From contig NZ_CP045643.1 of the NCBI RefSeq assembly GCF_009498275.1, forward strand, positions 3,472,001 through 3,536,000: a stretch of DNA of 64,000 nucleotides, in the 5' to 3' direction. The position numbers were made by a program, and so were the translations under genes. Shown in pieces: positions 2,883 through 49,871 of the stretch; positions within the stretch are counted from its first letter, which is position 1, and each line of letters opens with the position of its first letter. The notes under the pieces were generated by a model. That model had not been told where the DNA came from, made no database searches, and saw only the letters and a list, made by a program, of their open reading frames with translations. The stretch comes from Streptomyces fagopyri. Lineage in GTDB: Bacteria; Actinomycetota; Actinomycetes; Streptomycetales; Streptomycetaceae.

Positions 2883-2889
2883 CCTTGAG

Positions 2890-2963
2890 TAGCGGGGACA
2901 GGATTTGAACCTGCGACCTCTGGGTTATGAGCCCAGCGAGCTACCGAGCTGCTCCACCCCGCG
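2890..2963 (-). tRNA. Initiator tRNA-fMet (CAU), copy 1
   Basis: A 74-nt tRNA with anticodon CAU in the loop CTCATAA. Two initiator marks are visible: the anticodon stem ends in three G-C pairs (GGG/CCC next to the loop), and position 1 (C) cannot pair with position 72 (U). CCA is not encoded. It is identical over its whole length to the copy at 5267-5340. Confidence 0.95.
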
Positions 2964-5256: not shown

Positions 5257-5266
5257 CGCCTTTCAG

Positions 5267-5340
5267 TAGCGGGGACAGGATTTGAACCTGCGACCTCTGG
5301 GTTATGAGCCCAGCGAGCTACCGAGCTGCTCCACCCCGCG
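5267..5340 (-). tRNA. Initiator tRNA-fMet (CAU), copy 2
   Basis: A 74-nt tRNA identical to the copy at 2890-2963, with the same initiator features: GGG/CCC base of the anticodon stem and an unpaired C1-U72. Only the tRNA body is duplicated; the flanks and terminators differ. Confidence 0.95.
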
Positions 5341-42815: not shown

Positions 42816-43994
42816 TCAGTAGATCGGCTTGTCCGGTTCGATCTGGTTGACCCAGCCGATCACGCCGCCGCCGACGTGCACCGCGTCCGAGAAGCCCGCG
42901 GACTTCAGGACGGCGAGGACCTCCGCGCTGCGCACACCCGTCTTGCAGTGCAGGACGATCTTCTTGTCCTGCGGAAGGGTCTCCAGGGCGGTGCCCATGA
43001 GGAACTCGTTCTTCGGGATCAGCTTGGCGCCGGGGATCGAGACGATCTCGTACTCGTTGATCTCGCGGACGTCGATGATCTCGATGTTCTCGCCGTCGTC
43101 GATCCACTCCTTGAGCTGCTTGGGAGTGATCGTGGAGCCGGCCGCCGCCTGCTGGGCCTCCTCGGACACGACACCGCAGAAGGCCTCGTAGTCGATGAGT
43201 TCGGTGACGGTGGGGTTCTCGCCGCAGACCGCGCAGTCCGGGTCCTTGCGGACCTTGACCTGGCGGTACTGCATCTCCAGGGCGTCGTAGATCATCAGGC
43301 GGCCCACCAGGGGCTCGCCGATGCCTGCGAGCAGCTTGATCGCCTCGTTGACCTGGATGGAGCCGATGGACGCGCACAGCACGCCCAGGACACCGCCCTC
43401 GGCGCAGGAGGGGACCATGCCGGGGGGCGGGGGCTCCGGGTAGAGGCAGCGGTAGCAGGGGCCGTGCTCGGACCAGAAGACGGACGCCTGGCCGTCGAAG
43501 CGGTAGATCGAGCCCCACACGTACGGCTTGTCGAGGAGCACGCACGCGTCGTTGACCAGGTAGCGGGTCGCGAAGTTGTCCGTGCCGTCGACGATCAGGT
43601 CGTACTGGCTGAAGATGTCCATCACGTTCTCGGCCTCGAGCCGCTCTTCGTGCAGGACCACCTTCACGTACGGGTTGATGCCCAGCACGGAATCGCGCGC
43701 CGACTCGGCCTTGGAGCGGCCGATGTCCGCCTGGCTGTGGATGATCTGCCGCTGCAGGTTCGACTCGTCGACCTCGTCGAACTCCACGATGCCGAGCGTG
43801 CCCACGCCCGCCGCGGCCAGGTACATCAGCGCCGGGGACCCGAGGCCGCCGGCGCCCACACACAGCACCTTGGCGTTCTTCAGCCGCTTCTGCCCGTCCA
43901 TGCCCACGTCGGGGATGATCAGGTGGCGGGAGTACCTGCGGACCTCGTCTACGGTGAGCTCGGCAGCCGGCTCGACCAGGGGTGGCAGCGACAC
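42816..43994 (-). CDS. moeZ: Adenylyltransferase/sulfurtransferase MoeZ
   Basis: A 392-residue fusion of a ThiF/MoeB adenylyltransferase (residues 1-270) and a rhodanese domain (285-392). The E1 part has GAGGLGSP, the intact ESNLQRQI, and zinc pairs CYRC and CAVC; the rhodanese has the loop cysteine in HCKTGVRS. It activates and thiolates the C-terminus of ubiquitin-fold sulfur carriers for molybdopterin, cysteine or thiamin-type pathways. Unlike the ThiF-like protein at 18.9 kb, all E1 residues are present. The GTG at 43994 has GGAG upstream. It lies 63 bp after the spherulin-type gene. Confidence 0.94.
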   Translation of the reverse strand: MSLPPLVEPAAELTVDEVRRYSRHLIIPDVGMDGQKRLKNAKVLCVGAGGLGSPALMYLAAAGVGTLGIVEFDEVDESNLQRQIIHSQADIGRSKAESARDSVLGINPYVKVVLHEERLEAENVMDIFSQYDLIVDGTDNFATRYLVNDACVLLDKPYVWGSIYRFDGQASVFWSEHGPCYRCLYPEPPPPGMVPSCAEGGVLGVLCASIGSIQVNEAIKLLAGIGEPLVGRLMIYDALEMQYRQVKVRKDPDCAVCGENPTVTELIDYEAFCGVVSEEAQQAAAGSTITPKQLKEWIDDGENIEIIDVREINEYEIVSIPGAKLIPKNEFLMGTALETLPQDKKIVLHCKTGVRSAEVLAVLKSAGFSDAVHVGGGVIGWVNQIEPDKPIY

Positions 43995-44057: not shown

Positions 44058-44807
44058 TCATTCCGAGACACCCGTTCCGATCCGCGAGACGATCTCGTCC
44101 CAGTAGCCGGGCATCGTCTCCCAGGGGTCGGTACGGCCGCCCTGATCCGTGCGGTCGGTGAAGTAGATGGTCGAGGCGCCCTGCCAGCGCGCGATGCGCA
44201 GCGCCTCGTCCAGATGGCCGCGCGGCACGCCGTGCACGAAGTGGCAGAAGCGCTCGGGCGCGTAGTCGGCGGTCCACTCGGCGACCTGCGACCACCGGTA
44301 GTCGCTCCACGGGCCGGAGAACGTCACCAGCTGGTCGGCGTTCTCGGCATAGCCGGGGTAGGGGTGGGTGCCGTGACCGAGCACGATGTGCGGGTCGTCG
44401 AGGAGCGCGCGGAGCCCGGTGACCGCCCGGCGGACCTCGGGAAGCGCGGCGCGCTCGGTGGGGCAGCGGTGCAGGAGGAACCCGCCGACCCGGTACCAGT
44501 CGAGATACCGGTGGGCGTCGGAGATCACCTCGCCGACGGCACGTGCGCCGTAGGAGACGTCCAAGTGCCCGAGCACGCGCACACCGGCGTTGCGGAGCCG
44601 GCCGACGGCTTCCAGGCAGTGCGGGTCGGGGCGGACGCCGGGACCTTCGGCCACGTTCAGGACGACCCAGTGCAGTGGGGTGCCGGGGCGGGTGAGCGCG
44701 CCCCACTCCCCCGGTGCGACGAGGGGGTGCGCGTAGCCGGGGATGCCGAAACCGGTTCTCAGGTTCGTGCTCGCGGTGCCCGCCGTGGCGCTGGTCAGAT
44801 GCGGCAT
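44058..44807 (-). CDS. Spherulin-4-type glycoside hydrolase-like protein
   Basis: A 249-residue TIM-barrel protein of the spherulation-specific family 4 group: GFGIPGYAHPLVAPGEW, WVVLNVAEGPGVRPD, VRVLGHLDVSYGARAV and the segment IVLGHGTHPYPGY. In fungi, family members hydrolyse galactosaminogalactan, and a related domain acts in the Pel polysaccharide system. No signal peptide is seen, so it may be cytoplasmic or exported in another way. The start overlaps the epimerase stop by 13 bp, and the ATG has GGAGG upstream. Confidence 0.85.
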   Translation of the reverse strand: MPHLTSATAGTASTNLRTGFGIPGYAHPLVAPGEWGALTRPGTPLHWVVLNVAEGPGVRPDPHCLEAVGRLRNAGVRVLGHLDVSYGARAVGEVISDAHRYLDWYRVGGFLLHRCPTERAALPEVRRAVTGLRALLDDPHIVLGHGTHPYPGYAENADQLVTFSGPWSDYRWSQVAEWTADYAPERFCHFVHGVPRGHLDEALRIARWQGASTIYFTDRTDQGGRTDPWETMPGYWDEIVSRIGTGVSE

Positions 44808-45754
44808 GCCGCCTCCATCCAGATGTCGGCGAGGGACTCCTCCAGGTTGATCCGGGGCCGCCAGCCGAGGCGGTCGCGCGCGGTGCGTACGTCGGCCTGT
44901 TGCCAGCTGCCGCAGCCGTCCGGGTAGGGGTAGGCGGCCGGGCCCGCGTGGTCGGGTTCGGGGCGGGGGTGGCCGATGGGTGCCCTCATGGGTCCGGGCG
45001 GGCCGTCGAGTTCGTGCAGCGTGCCGCCGTAGCCGGCGACGCGGGCGAGGACGGCGGCGGCGTCGCGCAGACGGATGGCCCGCCCCGAGCCGATGTTGAT
45101 GACGCCCTGTGCGGCGGAGAGGGAGGCGGCGTGGACGGCACGGGCGACGTCGCGGACGTCGATGAAGTCGCGCTGGACGCCGAGCCCGCCGAGTTTGAGT
45201 TCGCCGTCGCCGGACTGCATGGCGCGCCGCATGGCCTCGGCGAGGCGGCCGAGCGGGGATCCGGCGGGCGTGCCGGGCCCGGCGGGCGAGAAGACGCGCA
45301 GGACGACGGCGTCGAGTCCGGAGCCGAGGACCAGTTCGGTGGCCGCGAGTTTGCTGACGCCGTACGGGCCGCCGGGGCGCGGGACGGCGTCCTCGGCGGT
45401 GGACGAACCGGGCTGGCTGGGCCCGTACTCGGCGCCGCAGCCGATCTGCACGAGCCGCGCCCCGCACCCGCTGCGCCGCAGGGCCTCGCAGACGGTGGCG
45501 ACGGCGACGGTGTTGTGCCGGGTCAGTTCGCGGGCGCCGCCGCGGGTGGCACCGGCGCAGTTGATGACGACCCCGGGGTGCACGGCGTCCAGGAAGCGGG
45601 TGAGCGCGCCGGGGCTGCCCGAGGCGAGGTCGAACCGTACGTCGGCGTCGTCGCCCCGGCCGAGCGCGGTGAGTTGCACGGCCGGGTCGGCGAGCAGTCT
45701 GTCGGCGACGAAACGGCCGAGGTATCCGTTGGCTCCGATCAGCAGGACCCTCAT
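44795..45754 (-). CDS. NAD-dependent sugar epimerase/dehydratase
   Basis: A 319-residue extended SDR. The nucleotide-binding GANGYLG is at residues 8-14, and the YGVSK pair supplies the catalytic Tyr and Lys near residue 130. The pattern fits NAD-dependent nucleotide-sugar epimerases or dehydratases. Given its neighbours it may act on UDP-GlcNAc/GalNAc, but this cannot be read from the sequence. It starts with an ATG overlapping a 15-codon ORF by ATGA and also has GGGAG 7 nt upstream. Confidence 0.88.
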   Translation of the reverse strand: MRVLLIGANGYLGRFVADRLLADPAVQLTALGRGDDADVRFDLASGSPGALTRFLDAVHPGVVINCAGATRGGARELTRHNTVAVATVCEALRRSGCGARLVQIGCGAEYGPSQPGSSTAEDAVPRPGGPYGVSKLAATELVLGSGLDAVVLRVFSPAGPGTPAGSPLGRLAEAMRRAMQSGDGELKLGGLGVQRDFIDVRDVARAVHAASLSAAQGVINIGSGRAIRLRDAAAVLARVAGYGGTLHELDGPPGPMRAPIGHPRPEPDHAGPAAYPYPDGCGSWQQADVRTARDRLGWRPRINLEESLADIWMEAACRI

Positions 45755-45798
45755 CGGGCGGCTCCCGGGGCGGATTCTCCGGTTCGGGAGGTGATCAT
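45751..45798 (-). CDS. 15-codon leader ORF coupled to the epimerase
   Basis: An ATG 8 nt after AAGGAG opens the short frame MITSRTGESAPGAAR, whose TGA overlaps the epimerase ATG (ATGA). Translating this ORF would deliver ribosomes to the epimerase start. It is too short to judge on composition, so it may be accidental. The remaining 236 bp up to the membrane gene hold nothing recognisable. Confidence 0.4.
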   Translation of the reverse strand: MITSRTGESAPGAAR

Positions 45799-46034
45799 CT
45801 GGCGTTCTCCTTCGGGGTGGTGCCGTGGGTCGGAAGGGAGGCCCGCGGTGTCGGCCCCGCGGGAGAGGTGGGCCCGGCGGCGGGGCCGGGCCCTCGGGTG
45901 GCGCTCACGACGGTTCGCGGCGGCGGAGGGCGCCGCGGGCCGGGGCGAGGTGCGCGGGTCGTGGTCCGCGGCGGGCGGTGCGCAGCGCTGTTCGCCGCCG
46001 TGTGCGCGGCCCGGGCCAGGCGCGGGGGCGGTGC

Positions 46035-47804
46035 TCACGGCGTCCCGTCGGGTACGGCGTGGGCCGAGGCCCGGGTCAGGGTGCGGGTCGCGTGGATCAG
46101 CAGGACGAGGGCGCCCGTGCCGCACACCAGGGCCGGGACGGCGGCGGGTCCCCACGCGGAGGCGACGGTCTCGACGGGCGTGCCCAGGAACGAACAGCCG
46201 GGCAGCCGGCCGGCGAAGACCGTGGCCGTCGCGGTGGTCTCGGCCGCGCCGGCCGCGCCGAGCACGACGGCGGGGGCGTGGGTGAAGCCGCGCACCACGA
46301 GCAGTCGCGCGAGCAGCAGCAACGCGCCGAGGGCGCCCGCTCCGGCGTAGGCGGGGGGCTCGTCCAGGGCCGCGCCGCAGAGCGCGAGCAGGGCGCCGAG
46401 TGAGCACAGGAAGAGGGCGAACACGCCCAGGAGCAGAGGTCTCACGGAGACCGCGAACTCCTTCAGGCCCCGGCTGGCGGCCAGTCCGCGGCGGGCGCGC
46501 GCCATGAAGAGGTGGGCGCACCAGGCGGCGGGGGCGCAGGACAGGGCGAGGGCGAGTACGGGCGCCGTGGTCGGCGGCCAGGGGTCGTCGGGGCCGCCGG
46601 AGAGGGCTGCGCTCAGCAGTCCGTCACCGAACAGGGCGTACACGATCAGCCAACAGGTCCACGCCCGGGTGCCGTTCGTCGTGCGGTGGGCGGTGCTGAG
46701 GGGGCCGCGGCGCAGAGCGGCGCGCAGGCCGAGTGTCACGGCGAGGGTTCCGGCCGCGGCGACGGCGAGATGGGCCTGCCCTTCGGTGAACCGCAGTCCG
46801 GTCACGGTTGCCGCGCACAGCGCGCCCGGCAGCAGGGCGAGCACGGCCCAGCCGGCGCGTGCGCCGGAGTGTGCCACGGGCGCGGATTGCGGGGCCGGTT
46901 CCACGTCGCGCGCCCGGCGTGCGTACATCTCCTCGGCGAGGGAGAACACGTCCCGGTGCCGGAAGCGGGTGGCGGTCCGGTCGGTCAGCCCGTGCGCCTC
47001 CAGGCCCGCCGCGATCTCCAGCGGGTCGACGGCGCGTTCGCAGAGTTCGCGGTGCCGGTGCATCAGGGCCTTCACCGGGTCCACGGCGTTCCGGCGGCCG
47101 GGGGGCCTTGGGGAGCGTCCGGGGAAGCCGCTCATGTCGTTCGACGCGTCGGGCACCGCGCTCGTGTTGATGCCCTCAGCCGGTACCTCAGTCGCTGGCT
47201 CAGTCGGTGCCTCTGCCGGTGCCTCTGCCGGTGCCTCTGACGCTGTCCCAGTTCCTGTCCCCGCCGCAGCTCCGGCCTCAACTCCGGCGTCGGCTCCGGC
47301 CTCAACTCCGGCGTCGGCTCGGGCATCGACTCCGGCGTCGGCTCCGGCTCCGGCCTCGGTTCCGAGAGGCGCGGAACCGGATGTGGCACCGGACGTGGGG
47401 CCGGTCATGGGACAAGGCGTGGGGACCGATCCGTCCGACAGTGCCGGTGGGACCGTCGCTACGGCCACCGATTCAGCCACCGATTCGGCCACCGCCACGG
47501 CCCCCGGCGCAGCGGCCGGTGCCGATGCGCGCACCGGCGCATCCCCGGAACTGCCCGCAGCCGCGCTCGCGGCAGCGGCTGCGGCTCCGGTCGCGGTGAC
47601 TGCGGCGCCGGCCGCGGCCCCCGTCGGACCCCCGCCGTTCCGGACGGTCGCCCGCGCACGAGGGTCCGCCTCCCCGTCTCCCACGAGACCCTCGTCCCCC
47701 AGGAACCACTCCACCGACTGTTCGTCCCAGGCCCCGGAGGTCTCCGCTGTCGCGGGCCGGCCCAGTTCGCCGAGTCGTCCTTCGGTTCGGCCCGGTTCGC
47801 CCAT
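46035..47804 (-). CDS. Membrane protein with Ala-rich N-terminal domain
   Basis: A 589-residue protein. The first 220 residues are low complexity, rich in Ala, Gly, Glu, Pro and Thr, with 8-residue units such as DAGVEAGA. Residues 240-310 look like a soluble helical domain. The rest has about eight transmembrane segments (for example AHLAVAAAGTLAVTLGLRAAL and LLLGVFALFLCSLGALLALC). There is no known-domain match, although its place after a PelF-like glycosyltransferase suggests it takes the role of a PelG/PelE-type membrane partner. Its ATG overlaps the glycosyltransferase stop as TGATG. Confidence 0.75.
   Translation of the reverse strand: MGEPGRTEGRLGELGRPATAETSGAWDEQSVEWFLGDEGLVGDGEADPRARATVRNGGGPTGAAAGAAVTATGAAAAAASAAAGSSGDAPVRASAPAAAPGAVAVAESVAESVAVATVPPALSDGSVPTPCPMTGPTSGATSGSAPLGTEAGAGADAGVDARADAGVEAGADAGVEAGAAAGTGTGTASEAPAEAPAEAPTEPATEVPAEGINTSAVPDASNDMSGFPGRSPRPPGRRNAVDPVKALMHRHRELCERAVDPLEIAAGLEAHGLTDRTATRFRHRDVFSLAEEMYARRARDVEPAPQSAPVAHSGARAGWAVLALLPGALCAATVTGLRFTEGQAHLAVAAAGTLAVTLGLRAALRRGPLSTAHRTTNGTRAWTCWLIVYALFGDGLLSAALSGGPDDPWPPTTAPVLALALSCAPAAWCAHLFMARARRGLAASRGLKEFAVSVRPLLLGVFALFLCSLGALLALCGAALDEPPAYAGAGALGALLLLARLLVVRGFTHAPAVVLGAAGAAETTATATVFAGRLPGCSFLGTPVETVASAWGPAAVPALVCGTGALVLLIHATRTLTRASAHAVPDGTP
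47269..47340 (-). repeat. 24-bp tandem repeat in the membrane protein gene
   Basis: Three 24-bp units; the first two are identical, the third differs at a few bases. They code for 8-residue units (DAGVEAGA-type) in the disordered N-terminal part of the protein. Similar looser repeats flank them between about 47200 and 47380. Confidence 0.8.
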
Positions 47805-49681
47805 CACGCGCCCTCCCCCGCGGTCAGCGGAAGGCTCACGCGTCCCGGGACCCCCGACGCCCAGCGCGACCGCCCGGCGGCGACGAGGCCGGCCTCGGTC
47901 CAGCGGCCGGGTACGTGGGCCTCGGCGGGTACGCCGAAGGGCAGCGGTTCGCCTGCCGCGTCCACGAGGACCCGCAGGATCGGGGAGCGCGAGACGATCT
48001 CCAGGTAAATGCCGTGAAATGCCTCGACGTTCTGCTCCACGGTGAACAGTTCGAGGGCACGCGCGCGTGCCGCCGCGCCGAGGCGTGCGCGCCGTCCGGG
48101 GTCGCGCAGCAGCGCCACGCACGCCTCGGCGAGCGCCCGCGGATTGCGTGGTGGCACCACCAGTCCCGTACCGCCGATGACTTCGACGACCGCGCCGACG
48201 TCGGTGGACACCGTGGCGCGGCCGCAGAACATCGCCTCGACGAGACTGATCGGAAAGCCCTCGACGACGCTGGACAGGACGACCAGGGCACCGGACGCGT
48301 ACGCCTCCGCGAGTCCCGGAGCCTCCGGACCGCCGATCTCCTCGAAGGACACCGGGTTGTCGCCGACGGCGTGCGCACCCTCGGCCTCGTCGGGGAAGAG
48401 ATGGGCGGCCAGCGCCTTGCAGTGCGCCAGATAGAGCGCGCCGTCCGGGCCCTCGGCGGGTGCTCCGAAGATCCGCAGCCGGGTCTTCGGCTCCTCCTTG
48501 CGGATCTCGGCGAACGAGTGCAGCAGGGAGACCAGGTCCTTCGACGGCTCGACGCGGCCGACCCAGACCAGCGTGTCCGGGTCCGCGCAGCCGGTGCCCT
48601 CGGCGCTCTCCCCCACTTCCGCGAAGCGGGACGCCTCCATGCCGGGGTAGACGGTGCGCAGTTTGGCGCGGTCGGCGCCGCAGCGCTCCTGCCAGCGCCG
48701 GGCGTGGATGTTGCCGGGCGTGATGAGCGCGGCCCGGCGGTAGACCTCGGTGGCCAGCCTGCCGTGGAAGGCGGCGAGCAGCGCCCGTACGGCCGGGGCT
48801 TCCTCGGTGGCGGCGGAGGCCAGGTAGTGCGCGCGCAACGGCACTCCGTACTCCGTGACGAGCAGCGGGACCGAGGCGAAGTGCCGGGCGAGCAGACCGG
48901 GCAGGGCCGCCGAGCCGCCGGCGGCCGCGTGGCAGAGGTCGACCGCGCCGAGCCCGTCGTCGGCGTACCAGTCCAGTGAGAGGGGGCGCAGCGACCGCTC
49001 GACGTGAGCGGCGACGGTGAGCAGATCGGGCACGCGAGCGGTGCGCGCGGCACGCAGTGCGCCCGGCGCGCGACAGGCGCGTTCCCATGCGCGCACGGCG
49101 GCCTCGGAGCGCAGCGCCCCGGCCAGGCCGCCCTCGTCGCGGGCGAGGTCCGCGAGTCCGTACAGCGCGGTGGCGAAACGGTCCGCCTCAAGGCCGAAGG
49201 AGCCCCCAGAGCCCCCGACCGCCCCCGCCCCCGCCCCCGCCCCACCGAAATCACGGGAAACACCGGCCGCACGGGCCGCACCGACCCCACCGGCCGCACC
49301 GGACGCACCGGCCGTGCCGGTCGCGCCGACCGCACCGACCCCACCGACCGCACCGGAACCGTCCACGCTCCCCGGGCCCGCGCAGACGGCCGCCGCCAGT
49401 TCCCCGAAGCACTCGGCGTACCGCCGCCGCGTCCGGCGTCCGTGCACCCGGCGCCCGTGCACCGCCCCGTCGCCCTCGGCCGTCCAGAGCGGAGCCGTCC
49501 GTACGCGGCTGACCTGGGGCGGCAGTGAGACCCAGCCCTCGTCCTCCTGCCGTCGGCTGCGGCTGAGCGCGTAGATGTCGAACTCGTGCTGCCCGAGCCC
49601 GCGCACGAGCCGGTCGCACCAGAGCTTGGCGTCACCGCTCACATACGGATAGCCACCCTCCGTAAGCAGTCCGATGCGCAC
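47804..49681 (-). CDS. DUF3492/PelF-like GT4 glycosyltransferase
   Basis: A 625-residue glycosyltransferase. The N-terminal LLTEGGYPYVSGDAKLW resembles the DUF3492/PelF signature, and the C-terminal half is a GT4 domain (VWVGRVEPSKDLVSLLHSF, VVLSSVVEGFPISLVEAMFCGRATVSTDVGAVVEV) with the EGFPISLVEAM donor-binding motif. PelF makes the Pel polysaccharide from UDP-sugars; the product here is unknown. An insertion of Gly/Ala/Val repeats (about residues 104-160) breaks the N-terminal domain. The GTG at 49681 has GGGGG 7 nt upstream. Confidence 0.85.
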   Translation of the reverse strand: MRIGLLTEGGYPYVSGDAKLWCDRLVRGLGQHEFDIYALSRSRRQEDEGWVSLPPQVSRVRTAPLWTAEGDGAVHGRRVHGRRTRRRYAECFGELAAAVCAGPGSVDGSGAVGGVGAVGATGTAGASGAAGGVGAARAAGVSRDFGGAGAGAGAVGGSGGSFGLEADRFATALYGLADLARDEGGLAGALRSEAAVRAWERACRAPGALRAARTARVPDLLTVAAHVERSLRPLSLDWYADDGLGAVDLCHAAAGGSAALPGLLARHFASVPLLVTEYGVPLRAHYLASAATEEAPAVRALLAAFHGRLATEVYRRAALITPGNIHARRWQERCGADRAKLRTVYPGMEASRFAEVGESAEGTGCADPDTLVWVGRVEPSKDLVSLLHSFAEIRKEEPKTRLRIFGAPAEGPDGALYLAHCKALAAHLFPDEAEGAHAVGDNPVSFEEIGGPEAPGLAEAYASGALVVLSSVVEGFPISLVEAMFCGRATVSTDVGAVVEVIGGTGLVVPPRNPRALAEACVALLRDPGRRARLGAAARARALELFTVEQNVEAFHGIYLEIVSRSPILRVLVDAAGEPLPFGVPAEAHVPGRWTEAGLVAAGRSRWASGVPGRVSLPLTAGEGA

Positions 49682-49761
49682 GAGTGCACCCCCGATCTCC
49701 CTTGTGGGGAGCCGCCGTTGACCCGGCGGCTCGCAGCGGGAAGAACGTATGCGGACATGAC

Positions 49762-49795
49762 GGTGGCGCGATGGACGGTTGTCCATCGCGCCACC
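49762..49795. terminator. Stable hairpin between the dpp and glycosyltransferase operons
   Basis: A 15-bp perfect stem (GGTGGCGCGATGGAC and complement) with a GGTT loop, 77 bp beyond the end of the dpp ATPase gene. No T run follows in the minus direction, so termination may need help. Confidence 0.55.
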
Positions 49796-49871
49796 AAAAG
49801 GGGTGAACGGTCGTAACTTTCCCGCGCAAGTTGCGTTCTGTCGCGCTAGGGAATCATTCGGTGACTTCCCG

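What the first reader, a model, noticed from the sequence alone, without database searches (positions are those of the whole stretch)
44058..49681. Pel-like exopolysaccharide cluster between moeZ and dpp
Four genes, three of them overlapping: a DUF3492/PelF-type glycosyltransferase, a polytopic membrane protein, a sugar epimerase and a spherulin-4-type hydrolase. In Pel and fungal galactosaminogalactan systems, a related glycosyltransferase, membrane partner, UDP-HexNAc epimerase and hydrolase work together. PelD/PelE and a PelA deacetylase are not seen. This may be a reduced actinobacterial version making an aminosugar polymer.
Basis: inference. Interest (0 to 1): 0.75.

Follow-up and report, generated by a model that had tools for sequence, protein, structure and literature searches.

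The report
Remodelled Pel/GAG-like locus in Streptomyces
A four-gene cluster found next to moeZ in every Streptomyces genome examined descends from a bacterial sugar-polymer (Pel/galactosaminogalactan-like) factory, but its exporter is shortened and its polymer-cutting enzyme has lost a key catalytic residue, so it has probably been turned to a different and still unknown job.

Summary
The four genes are real: GT, membrane protein (MP), SDR and spherulin-4 protein (SPH). Pel/GAG kinship is real by descent. The GT's best curated family is PelF, just under its cut-off. The MP is homologous to the MP of Agd3-type actinobacterial clusters, predicted to have a MATE/MOP fold. The GT tree places the locus beside a complete Agd3-type cluster (L085).

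But it is a remodelled derivative. Agd3, GH114, dehydratase/GalE and nucleotidyltransferase genes are absent. The MP has about 8 instead of 12 TM helices. The SPH acid/base Glu is missing in 20 of 20 Streptomyces rows and 79 of 79 further rows. The SDR's catalytic Ser is Cys in 22 of 22 and 80 of 80 (both second sets chosen by SDR similarity), and its nearest solved relative is a 4-ketohexose reductase. The GT donor motif is intact in 22 of 22.

GT-MP-SDR(-SPH)-moeZ order holds in all 38 moeZ-linked loci fetched. A promoter-like element stands before the GT, once per genome, in 21 of 22 Streptomyces and 0 of 224 other genomes.

An exported aminosugar polymer is doubtful. A repurposed, membrane-docked GT complex fits better. 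Function is untested.

The parts
47804..49681 (-). DUF3492/GT4 glycosyltransferase (625 aa; an in-frame ATG upstream would begin at 49786), EX7E donor motif EGFPISLVEA intact
46035..47804 (-). Polytopic membrane protein (589 aa): low-complexity N-terminus, conserved motif before the TM part (HRHRELCERAVDPLEIAAGLEAHG...), about 8 TM helices; homolog of the 12-TM MATE/MOP-fold protein of Agd3-type clusters with about four TM helices missing
44795..45754 (-). Extended SDR (319 aa), GxxGxxG and YxxxK kept, Cys at the catalytic Ser position (IGCGAEYG); nearest solved relative is a 4-ketohexose reductase
44058..44807 (-). Spherulin-4 (GH135-like) protein; nucleophile Asp replaced by His (GFLLHRCP), acid/base Glu by Ser (VTFSG); no signal peptide seen by eye
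42816..43994 (-). moeZ, constant downstream neighbour (66 nt from SPH coding end here and in most Streptomyces loci)
49744..49817 (-). Conserved promoter-like element, one copy in this genome: GTTACG-N4-TTCACCCCTT (49798-49817), 15-bp inverted repeat with AACC centre (49762-49795), TAnnnT (49744-49749) 23 nt from GGACAACCGTCC

Best explanation
The locus is a copy of a complete Agd3-type (bacterial galactosaminogalactan-like) cluster that settled upstream of moeZ in an ancestor of much of Streptomycetaceae and was then remodelled. Supported by sequence: descent; absence of Agd3, GH114, 4,6-dehydratase and nucleotidyltransferase genes; shortening of the MATE/MOP-like membrane protein; loss of the GH135 acid/base residue; Cys for Ser in the SDR; intact GT donor site in Streptomyces; a dedicated promoter-like element. 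Inferred mechanism: the GT4 enzyme still transfers a sugar (probably a HexNAc from a UDP donor) at the cytoplasmic membrane face, docked on the 8-TM protein through its conserved N-terminal domain. The SDR and the inactive spherulin-4 barrel act as binding or regulatory subunits. The product is more likely a short glycan or glycolipid, or an internally kept product, than a long exported cationic polymer.
Against: No product, substrate or phenotype is known. Four moeZ-linked loci of other genera have degraded GT donor residues (L081, L087, L089, L091), so the GT reaction cannot be all that keeps the locus. The core MP model is poor (pLDDT 51), so its fold and which helices are missing rest on alignment. 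In the Agd3-type MP match Foldseek TM-scores on the query are only 0.40-0.47 for the nine best. SPH and GT evolve fairly fast. In 12 of 101 family genomes the GT search found nothing stronger than E 5e-22; these were not examined. Loss of catalysis in SPH does not exclude a polymer exported by another route.
Confidence: 0.5

Rival explanations
1. Reduced Pel/GAG factory: GT and MP make and export an aminosugar polymer, the SDR supplies UDP-HexNAc and SPH trims it.
For: GT nearest to PelF, donor site intact, MP homologous to a predicted MATE/MOP-fold protein, Spherulin4 domain present. PMC7229062 reports Agd3 operons with GT, membrane protein, mostly GH114, and spherulin-4 in some Actinobacteria (passages).
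Against: MP lacks about four TM helices; SPH acid/base Glu absent in 20 of 20 and 79 of 79 rows; SDR nearest to a 4-keto reductase with Cys for Ser; no deacetylase or PelG at the locus.
Confidence: 0.25
2. The enzyme that matters is the SDR: it makes or modifies a sugar nucleotide or another ketone, and GT, MP and SPH are accessory or drifting.
For: SDR and moeZ have equally low median dN/dS (0.14) while GT and SPH are at 0.37-0.38. The SDR is in all 38 moeZ-linked loci fetched, including those with degraded GT or no SPH. In L037 its homolog sits with a LegB-like dehydratase and a nucleotidyltransferase.
Against: Catalytic Ser is Cys in all Streptomyces rows. No dehydratase or nucleotidyltransferase match is left at the moeZ-linked loci. 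The GT donor site is kept in Streptomyces.
Confidence: 0.15
3. A decaying relic without function.
For: Stepwise loss of catalytic residues; SPH not found in 2 of 22 Streptomyces and 5 of 16 other moeZ-linked loci; GT frame interrupted in L092; GT donor residues lost in four loci.
Against: Kept in 22 of 22 Streptomyces. In the SDR-selected named set, moeZ follows in 78 of 78 and GT and MP precede in 71 of 71 loci with enough sequence. SDR dN/dS 0.14. Element with fixed spacing.
Confidence: 0.1

Closest known systems
Agd3-containing bacterial exopolysaccharide operons (CE18 deacetylase, GT, membrane protein, GH114, in some spherulin-4), reported in PMC7229062
   Same: Homologous GT, membrane protein, SDR and spherulin-4 in the loci I fetched; common ancestry by GT tree
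   Different: Window locus has no Agd3, GH114, GalE/LegB-type or nucleotidyltransferase gene; MP shortened; SPH and SDR catalytic residues changed
Fungal galactosaminogalactan cluster (uge3, gtb3, agd3, ega3, sph3)
   Same: Spherulin-4 domain (Sph3 5c5g, E 2.3e-8); an SDR; GT plus membrane part
   Different: Sph3 is an active GH135 with Asp and Glu; the window SPH has neither. Gtb3 was not compared here
Pel systems, Gram-negative pelABCDEFG and Gram-positive pelDEADAFG (PMC7112168)
   Same: PelF-type GT with a polytopic membrane partner
   Different: No PF16933 PelG hit at the locus, no PelD, PelE or PelA-type gene among the four; two PelF rows used as outgroup have long branches

Membership tests
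Pel operon | PelF glycosyltransferase (NCBIfam NF038011) | tested here: inconclusive
   Best family, but 90.6 bits under the cut-off of 100; Agd3-type GTs L042 and L044 score 173 and 149
Pel operon | PelG (PF16933) beside PelF | tested here: not met
   No PF16933 match at the locus; own genome has only a 25.5-bit hit elsewhere, below the cut-off of 29
Pel operon | PelD, PelE and PelA-type deacetylase at the locus | tested here: not met
   Pfam and NCBIfam scans of the four genes show none; flanks are moeZ and an ABC transporter
Agd3-type (GAG-like) cluster | DUF3492 GT in the Agd3-type lineage | tested here: met
   Nested among Agd3-type GTs with L085 as sister
Agd3-type (GAG-like) cluster | Homologous membrane protein | tested here: met
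   hhalign 99.7%, E 8.5e-26; search with the L042 MP reaches P0104, also a hit of the window MP, at E 7.8e-5 over 11% of the query
Agd3-type (GAG-like) cluster | 12-TM exporter | tested here: not met
   5-8 hydropathy peaks in usable moeZ-linked rows against 10-12 in Agd3-type rows; about 100 or more columns missing; core model too poor to confirm by fold
Agd3-type (GAG-like) cluster | Agd3/CE18 gene | tested here: not met
   None among the four genes nor by tblastn in the 38 moeZ-linked loci; whole-genome search empty but without a positive control
Agd3-type (GAG-like) cluster | GH114 gene in the cluster | tested here: not met
   No tblastn match at the locus; one GH114 elsewhere in the genome. 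Not every Agd3-type locus fetched shows one either
GH135 endo-alpha-1,4-N-acetylgalactosaminidase | Spherulin4 domain | tested here: met
   82.9 bits, cut-off 30.2; Sph3 5c5g E 2.3e-8. In the genome survey PF12138 itself finds only 8 moeZ-locus SPHs among the 22 Streptomyces; the others were found by tblastn
GH135 endo-alpha-1,4-N-acetylgalactosaminidase | Asp nucleophile and Glu acid/base | tested here: not met
   His and Ser in the window; Glu absent in 20 of 20 and 79 of 79 Streptomyces rows; residue pair named in PMC12054363
UDP-HexNAc 4-epimerase (GalE/Uge3) | GalE-type sequence with Ser-Tyr-Lys triad | tested here: not met
   NCBIfam galE 31.7 bits, cut-off 262; Cys for Ser; activity not tested
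GAG or Pel production | Partly deacetylated GalNAc-rich polymer | not testable with these tools
   Needs deletion strains and carbohydrate analysis

The most novel reading that the evidence does not exclude
A complete exopolysaccharide synthesis-and-export machine was converted, in an ancestor of Streptomyces and sister genera, into a non-exporting membrane complex made of an active GT4 enzyme, a truncated flippase used as a platform, an altered SDR and a pseudo-glycosidase used as a glycan or protein binder. It is controlled by its own promoter element and may tie envelope glycan status to growth or to moeZ-dependent sulfur metabolism.
Probability: 0.35. Interest if true: 0.8.

Novelty: new variant of a known kind. 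Interest (0 to 1): 0.62.

Why it matters
Each of the 22 Streptomyces genomes sampled carries this locus, and my literature searches found no function for it. If repurposed, it would be a clear case of a Pel/GAG-type machine turned into something else, with living intermediates (L085 complete, L080 with SPH Glu and SDR Ser still present) that make the steps testable. If it still makes a polymer, Streptomyces would have a matrix polysaccharide system besides CslA/GlxA (recalled) and MatAB (search listing of PMC5972031), bearing on pellet formation. It also warns that 'spherulation-specific family 4' and 'PelF' labels in Streptomyces do not by themselves show GAG hydrolysis or Pel production.

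Tried and rejected
Trehalose, glycogen or mycothiol GT: rejected, PelF scores higher. PelG identity: no PF16933 match at the locus. Rfam family for the upstream element: none at gathering threshold, three far-below-cut-off hits in the lax search. Sigma-70 consensus and terminator scan of the upstream region: nothing. Literature: of SCO5178-5183, the names SCO5179-5182 occurred in no paper, SCO5183 in two that I did not open, SCO5178 in two of which I saw passages; DUF3492 with Streptomyces gave 0 papers; the spherulation-specific term gave one listing that I did not open; the promoter words gave 47 papers, 10 listed, none with a title on Streptomyces among those.

AlphaFold of the core MP was too poor for a fold search, so only the Agd3-type MP was compared with solved structures; no PelG was among the rows shown there. 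Coincident loss of SDR Ser and SPH Glu was considered: L080 keeps both, and all Cys loci that have SPH lack Glu, but parsimony gives 2 changes on the SDR tree and L080/L081 placement is unresolved, so a single event is not shown. In that SDR tree the moeZ-linked rows apart from L085 group only at 89/44. RNA versus DNA reading of the palindrome is not decided; the 23-nt distance to TAnnnT favours a promoter/operator.

Rows left out: SPH not found in L053, L067 and L045; L036 and L046 are the same place, so the 15 comparison rows are 14 places; L082 and L092 GT not scored (L092 frame interrupted; L082 only a 39-residue tblastn piece, though one search finds a GT there); L056 left out of alignment A1; the L079, L081 and L088 rows were wrongly cropped or framed and not used, and only 11 of 23 aligned rows were printed; the upstream rows are 34 of 35, one being partly masked, and L087, L089 and L091 were not in them. 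In one search a pattern missed 2 GT rows and several SPH residues; one search recounted them by alignment.
Full report
Where it is. The window lies in an 8.88-Mb single-contig genome. The closest named GT relative is from Streptomyces fagopyri, 96% identical. The genome has one DUF3492 gene and one Spherulin4 gene by family search, both at this locus.

What is there. The minus strand carries GT (47804-49681), MP (46035-47804), SDR (44795-45754) and SPH (44058-44807), then moeZ (42816-43994). GT/MP and SDR/SPH overlap; MP and SDR do not. A dipeptide ABC transporter lies upstream of the GT, and two TAP-like hydrolase genes lie beyond moeZ on the other strand.

Conservation. A search of 246 Actinomycetia genomes with the GT found strong matches in 22 of 22 Streptomyces. 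Of the other 224 genomes only G203, G006, G095 and G128 had a best match stronger than E 1e-40, and theirs lie in Agd3-type loci. I examined the locus in all 22 Streptomyces: GT, MP, SDR and moeZ are in the same order in 22 of 22, SPH in 20 of 22. The MP was recognised in several only through its N-terminal motif region. In a search of 101 Streptomycetaceae genomes (21 of them Streptomyces) 12 had no GT match stronger than E 5e-22; I did not examine those. I chose 20 regions from 18 non-Streptomyces genomes of that search; 16 of the 20 are moeZ-linked, all with SDR, MP and at least a GT piece in the same order, and SPH is found in 11 of 16. A separate scan for the SDR kept its best 80 loci, 79 titled Streptomyces and one Actinobacteria bacterium. 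With enough flank, moeZ follows in 78 of 78, SPH in 77 of 78, and GT and MP precede in 71 of 71. That set was chosen by SDR similarity, so it shows linkage, not prevalence.

The related clusters. Other DUF3492 GT loci carry an Agd3-like protein with the GT and a 442-620-residue MP without a Pfam hit where scanned, plus varied sets of Spherulin4, GH114, GalE (L042) or a LegB-like dehydratase with nucleotidyltransferase and SDR (L037). L045 shows no SPH or GH114 in the part fetched; L039 and L041 show only Agd3, GT, MP and SPH. The Pfam Agd3 match is above cut-off in L045 and below it in L044, L037 and L048; the L045 protein matches those of L044 and L048 at 25-27% identity, E 3e-24 or better. 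A named example is the Streptomyces californicus plasmid NZ_CP070247. Such Agd3 operons, some with spherulin-4, were reported in PMC7229062 (passages). Gram-positive Pel was reported in PMC7112168 (passages), including PelD proteins with an N-terminal epimerase-like domain judged likely inactive in several groups; an altered SDR in such a machine therefore has a precedent.

Descent. In the GT tree, 23 moeZ-linked rows (11 of 22 Streptomyces, 12 of 16 others) form one group (SH-aLRT 99) whose sister (98) is L085, a complete Agd3-type cluster; PelF rows from Cetobacterium and Cupriavidus were the outgroup and have long branches, and three rows have unusual letter make-up. The SDR tree separates L085 and the moeZ-linked rows from six other Agd3-type rows at 100/100, but groups the moeZ-linked rows without L085 only at 89/44.

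Spherulin-4 protein. PMC12054363 names the Asp nucleophile and Glu acid/base pair of these families and gives Glu222 for Sph3 (passages). In the Sph3 alignment the window has His where Sph3 has the Asp and Ser where it has the Glu. Asp and Glu are both present in 15 of 15 Agd3-type or unlinked rows (14 places) and in L085, L086, L088 and L090. In Streptomyces, Glu is present in 0 of 20 rows and Asp in 13 of 20. In the 79 further rows Glu is present in 0 and Asp in 63. In 11 other moeZ-linked rows Asp is in 11, Glu only in L080, and L092 has Asp at the Glu position. I infer that the acid/base went first and the nucleophile later. No signal peptide is evident in either group, by inspection only, so location does not set them apart.

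SDR. GxxGxxG and YxxxK are kept in all 22 Streptomyces. The catalytic Ser position is Cys in 22 of 22, in 12 of 16 other moeZ-linked loci and in 80 of 80 named loci; it is Ser in 9 of 9 Agd3-type rows that have this SDR and in L080, L087, L089 and L091. That the position is the catalytic one is by comparison with E. coli GalE from memory. The best solved relative is a GDP-4-keto-6-deoxyhexose reductase.

GT. Both Glu of EX7E and the Lys are kept in 22 of 22 Streptomyces, the Arg in 21 of 22; 16 of 16 Agd3-type rows are intact; of 14 other moeZ-linked rows scored, 10 are intact and 4 (one genome each of four genera) are degraded. In the named set 73 of 73 have both Glu.

Selection. Median pairwise dN/dS (a simple NG86 estimate on tblastn-matched parts) is 0.14 for SDR and moeZ, 0.37 for SPH and 0.38 for GT. 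SPH is thus constrained, but not strongly.

Upstream element. GTTACG-N4-TTCACCCCTT, an inverted repeat around GGACAACCGTCC and TAnnnT stand 5' of the GT. With up to 3 mismatches the pattern occurs once in each of 21 of 22 Streptomyces genomes and in 0 of 224 others, and the reversed control never matches; in the 22nd genome the stretch is partly masked. It is present in 13 of 16 other moeZ-linked loci (not L087, L089, L091) and in none of 17 Agd3-type loci checked. All 34 unmasked rows of 35 have GACAACCGTC, and TAnnnT stands at 23 nt in 32 of 34. In the named set GGACAACCGTCC is in 69 of 71, with TAnnnT at 23 nt in those 69; both blocks are found in 66, at the same 13-nt gap in 65.

What else the genome offers. 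One GH114 gene lies elsewhere. No Agd3 match was found, a weak negative without a positive control genome. PelG has no match over cut-off.

How it probably works. The part that synthesises (GT) is kept; the parts that export, cut, deacetylate and supply precursors are lost or altered. I therefore infer a membrane-docked GT complex with a short or non-exported product. That genomes of four other genera keep MP, SDR and moeZ linkage with a degraded GT argues that part of the retained role is not the GT reaction. No step of this mechanism has been tested.

Novelty. I found no paper on this locus in the held library; most subscription papers are not held. The family of clusters is known; this remodelled, moeZ-linked form, found in all Streptomyces sampled, is a new variant.

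Noticed in passing
window 49744-49817: Locus-specific promoter-like element with a 15-bp inverted repeat and fixed spacing to TAnnnT, conserved across Streptomyces and sister genera; regulator unknown.
   Followed up: partly
L085 (G259:C2:747000-763000): Intermediate cluster: complete Agd3-type set, but MP, SDR and SPH most like the moeZ-linked versions, with SPH Asp and Glu intact.
   Followed up: yes
L081, L087, L089, L091: moeZ-linked loci whose GT has lost EX7E and other donor-site residues.
   Followed up: partly
L037, L094: Agd3-type clusters of Streptomyces carry a LegB-like (L037) or SDR-family (L094) protein, a nucleotidyltransferase and a reductase-like SDR, which hints at a 6-deoxy amino sugar in the polymer.
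   Followed up: no
L098 (Kocuria rosea plasmid NZ_CP126484): DUF3492 GT cluster with spherulin-4 and polygalactosaminidase flanked by two copies of one transposase gene (same protein accession), a possible composite transposon.
   Followed up: no
P0294: 802-residue protein with a Spherulin4 domain that also matches the Agd3-type MP (24% of the query, 49% identity), a possible natural fusion.
   Followed up: no
window 2889-2963 and 5266-5340: Two tRNA-Met genes on the minus strand about 2.3 kb apart.
   Followed up: no
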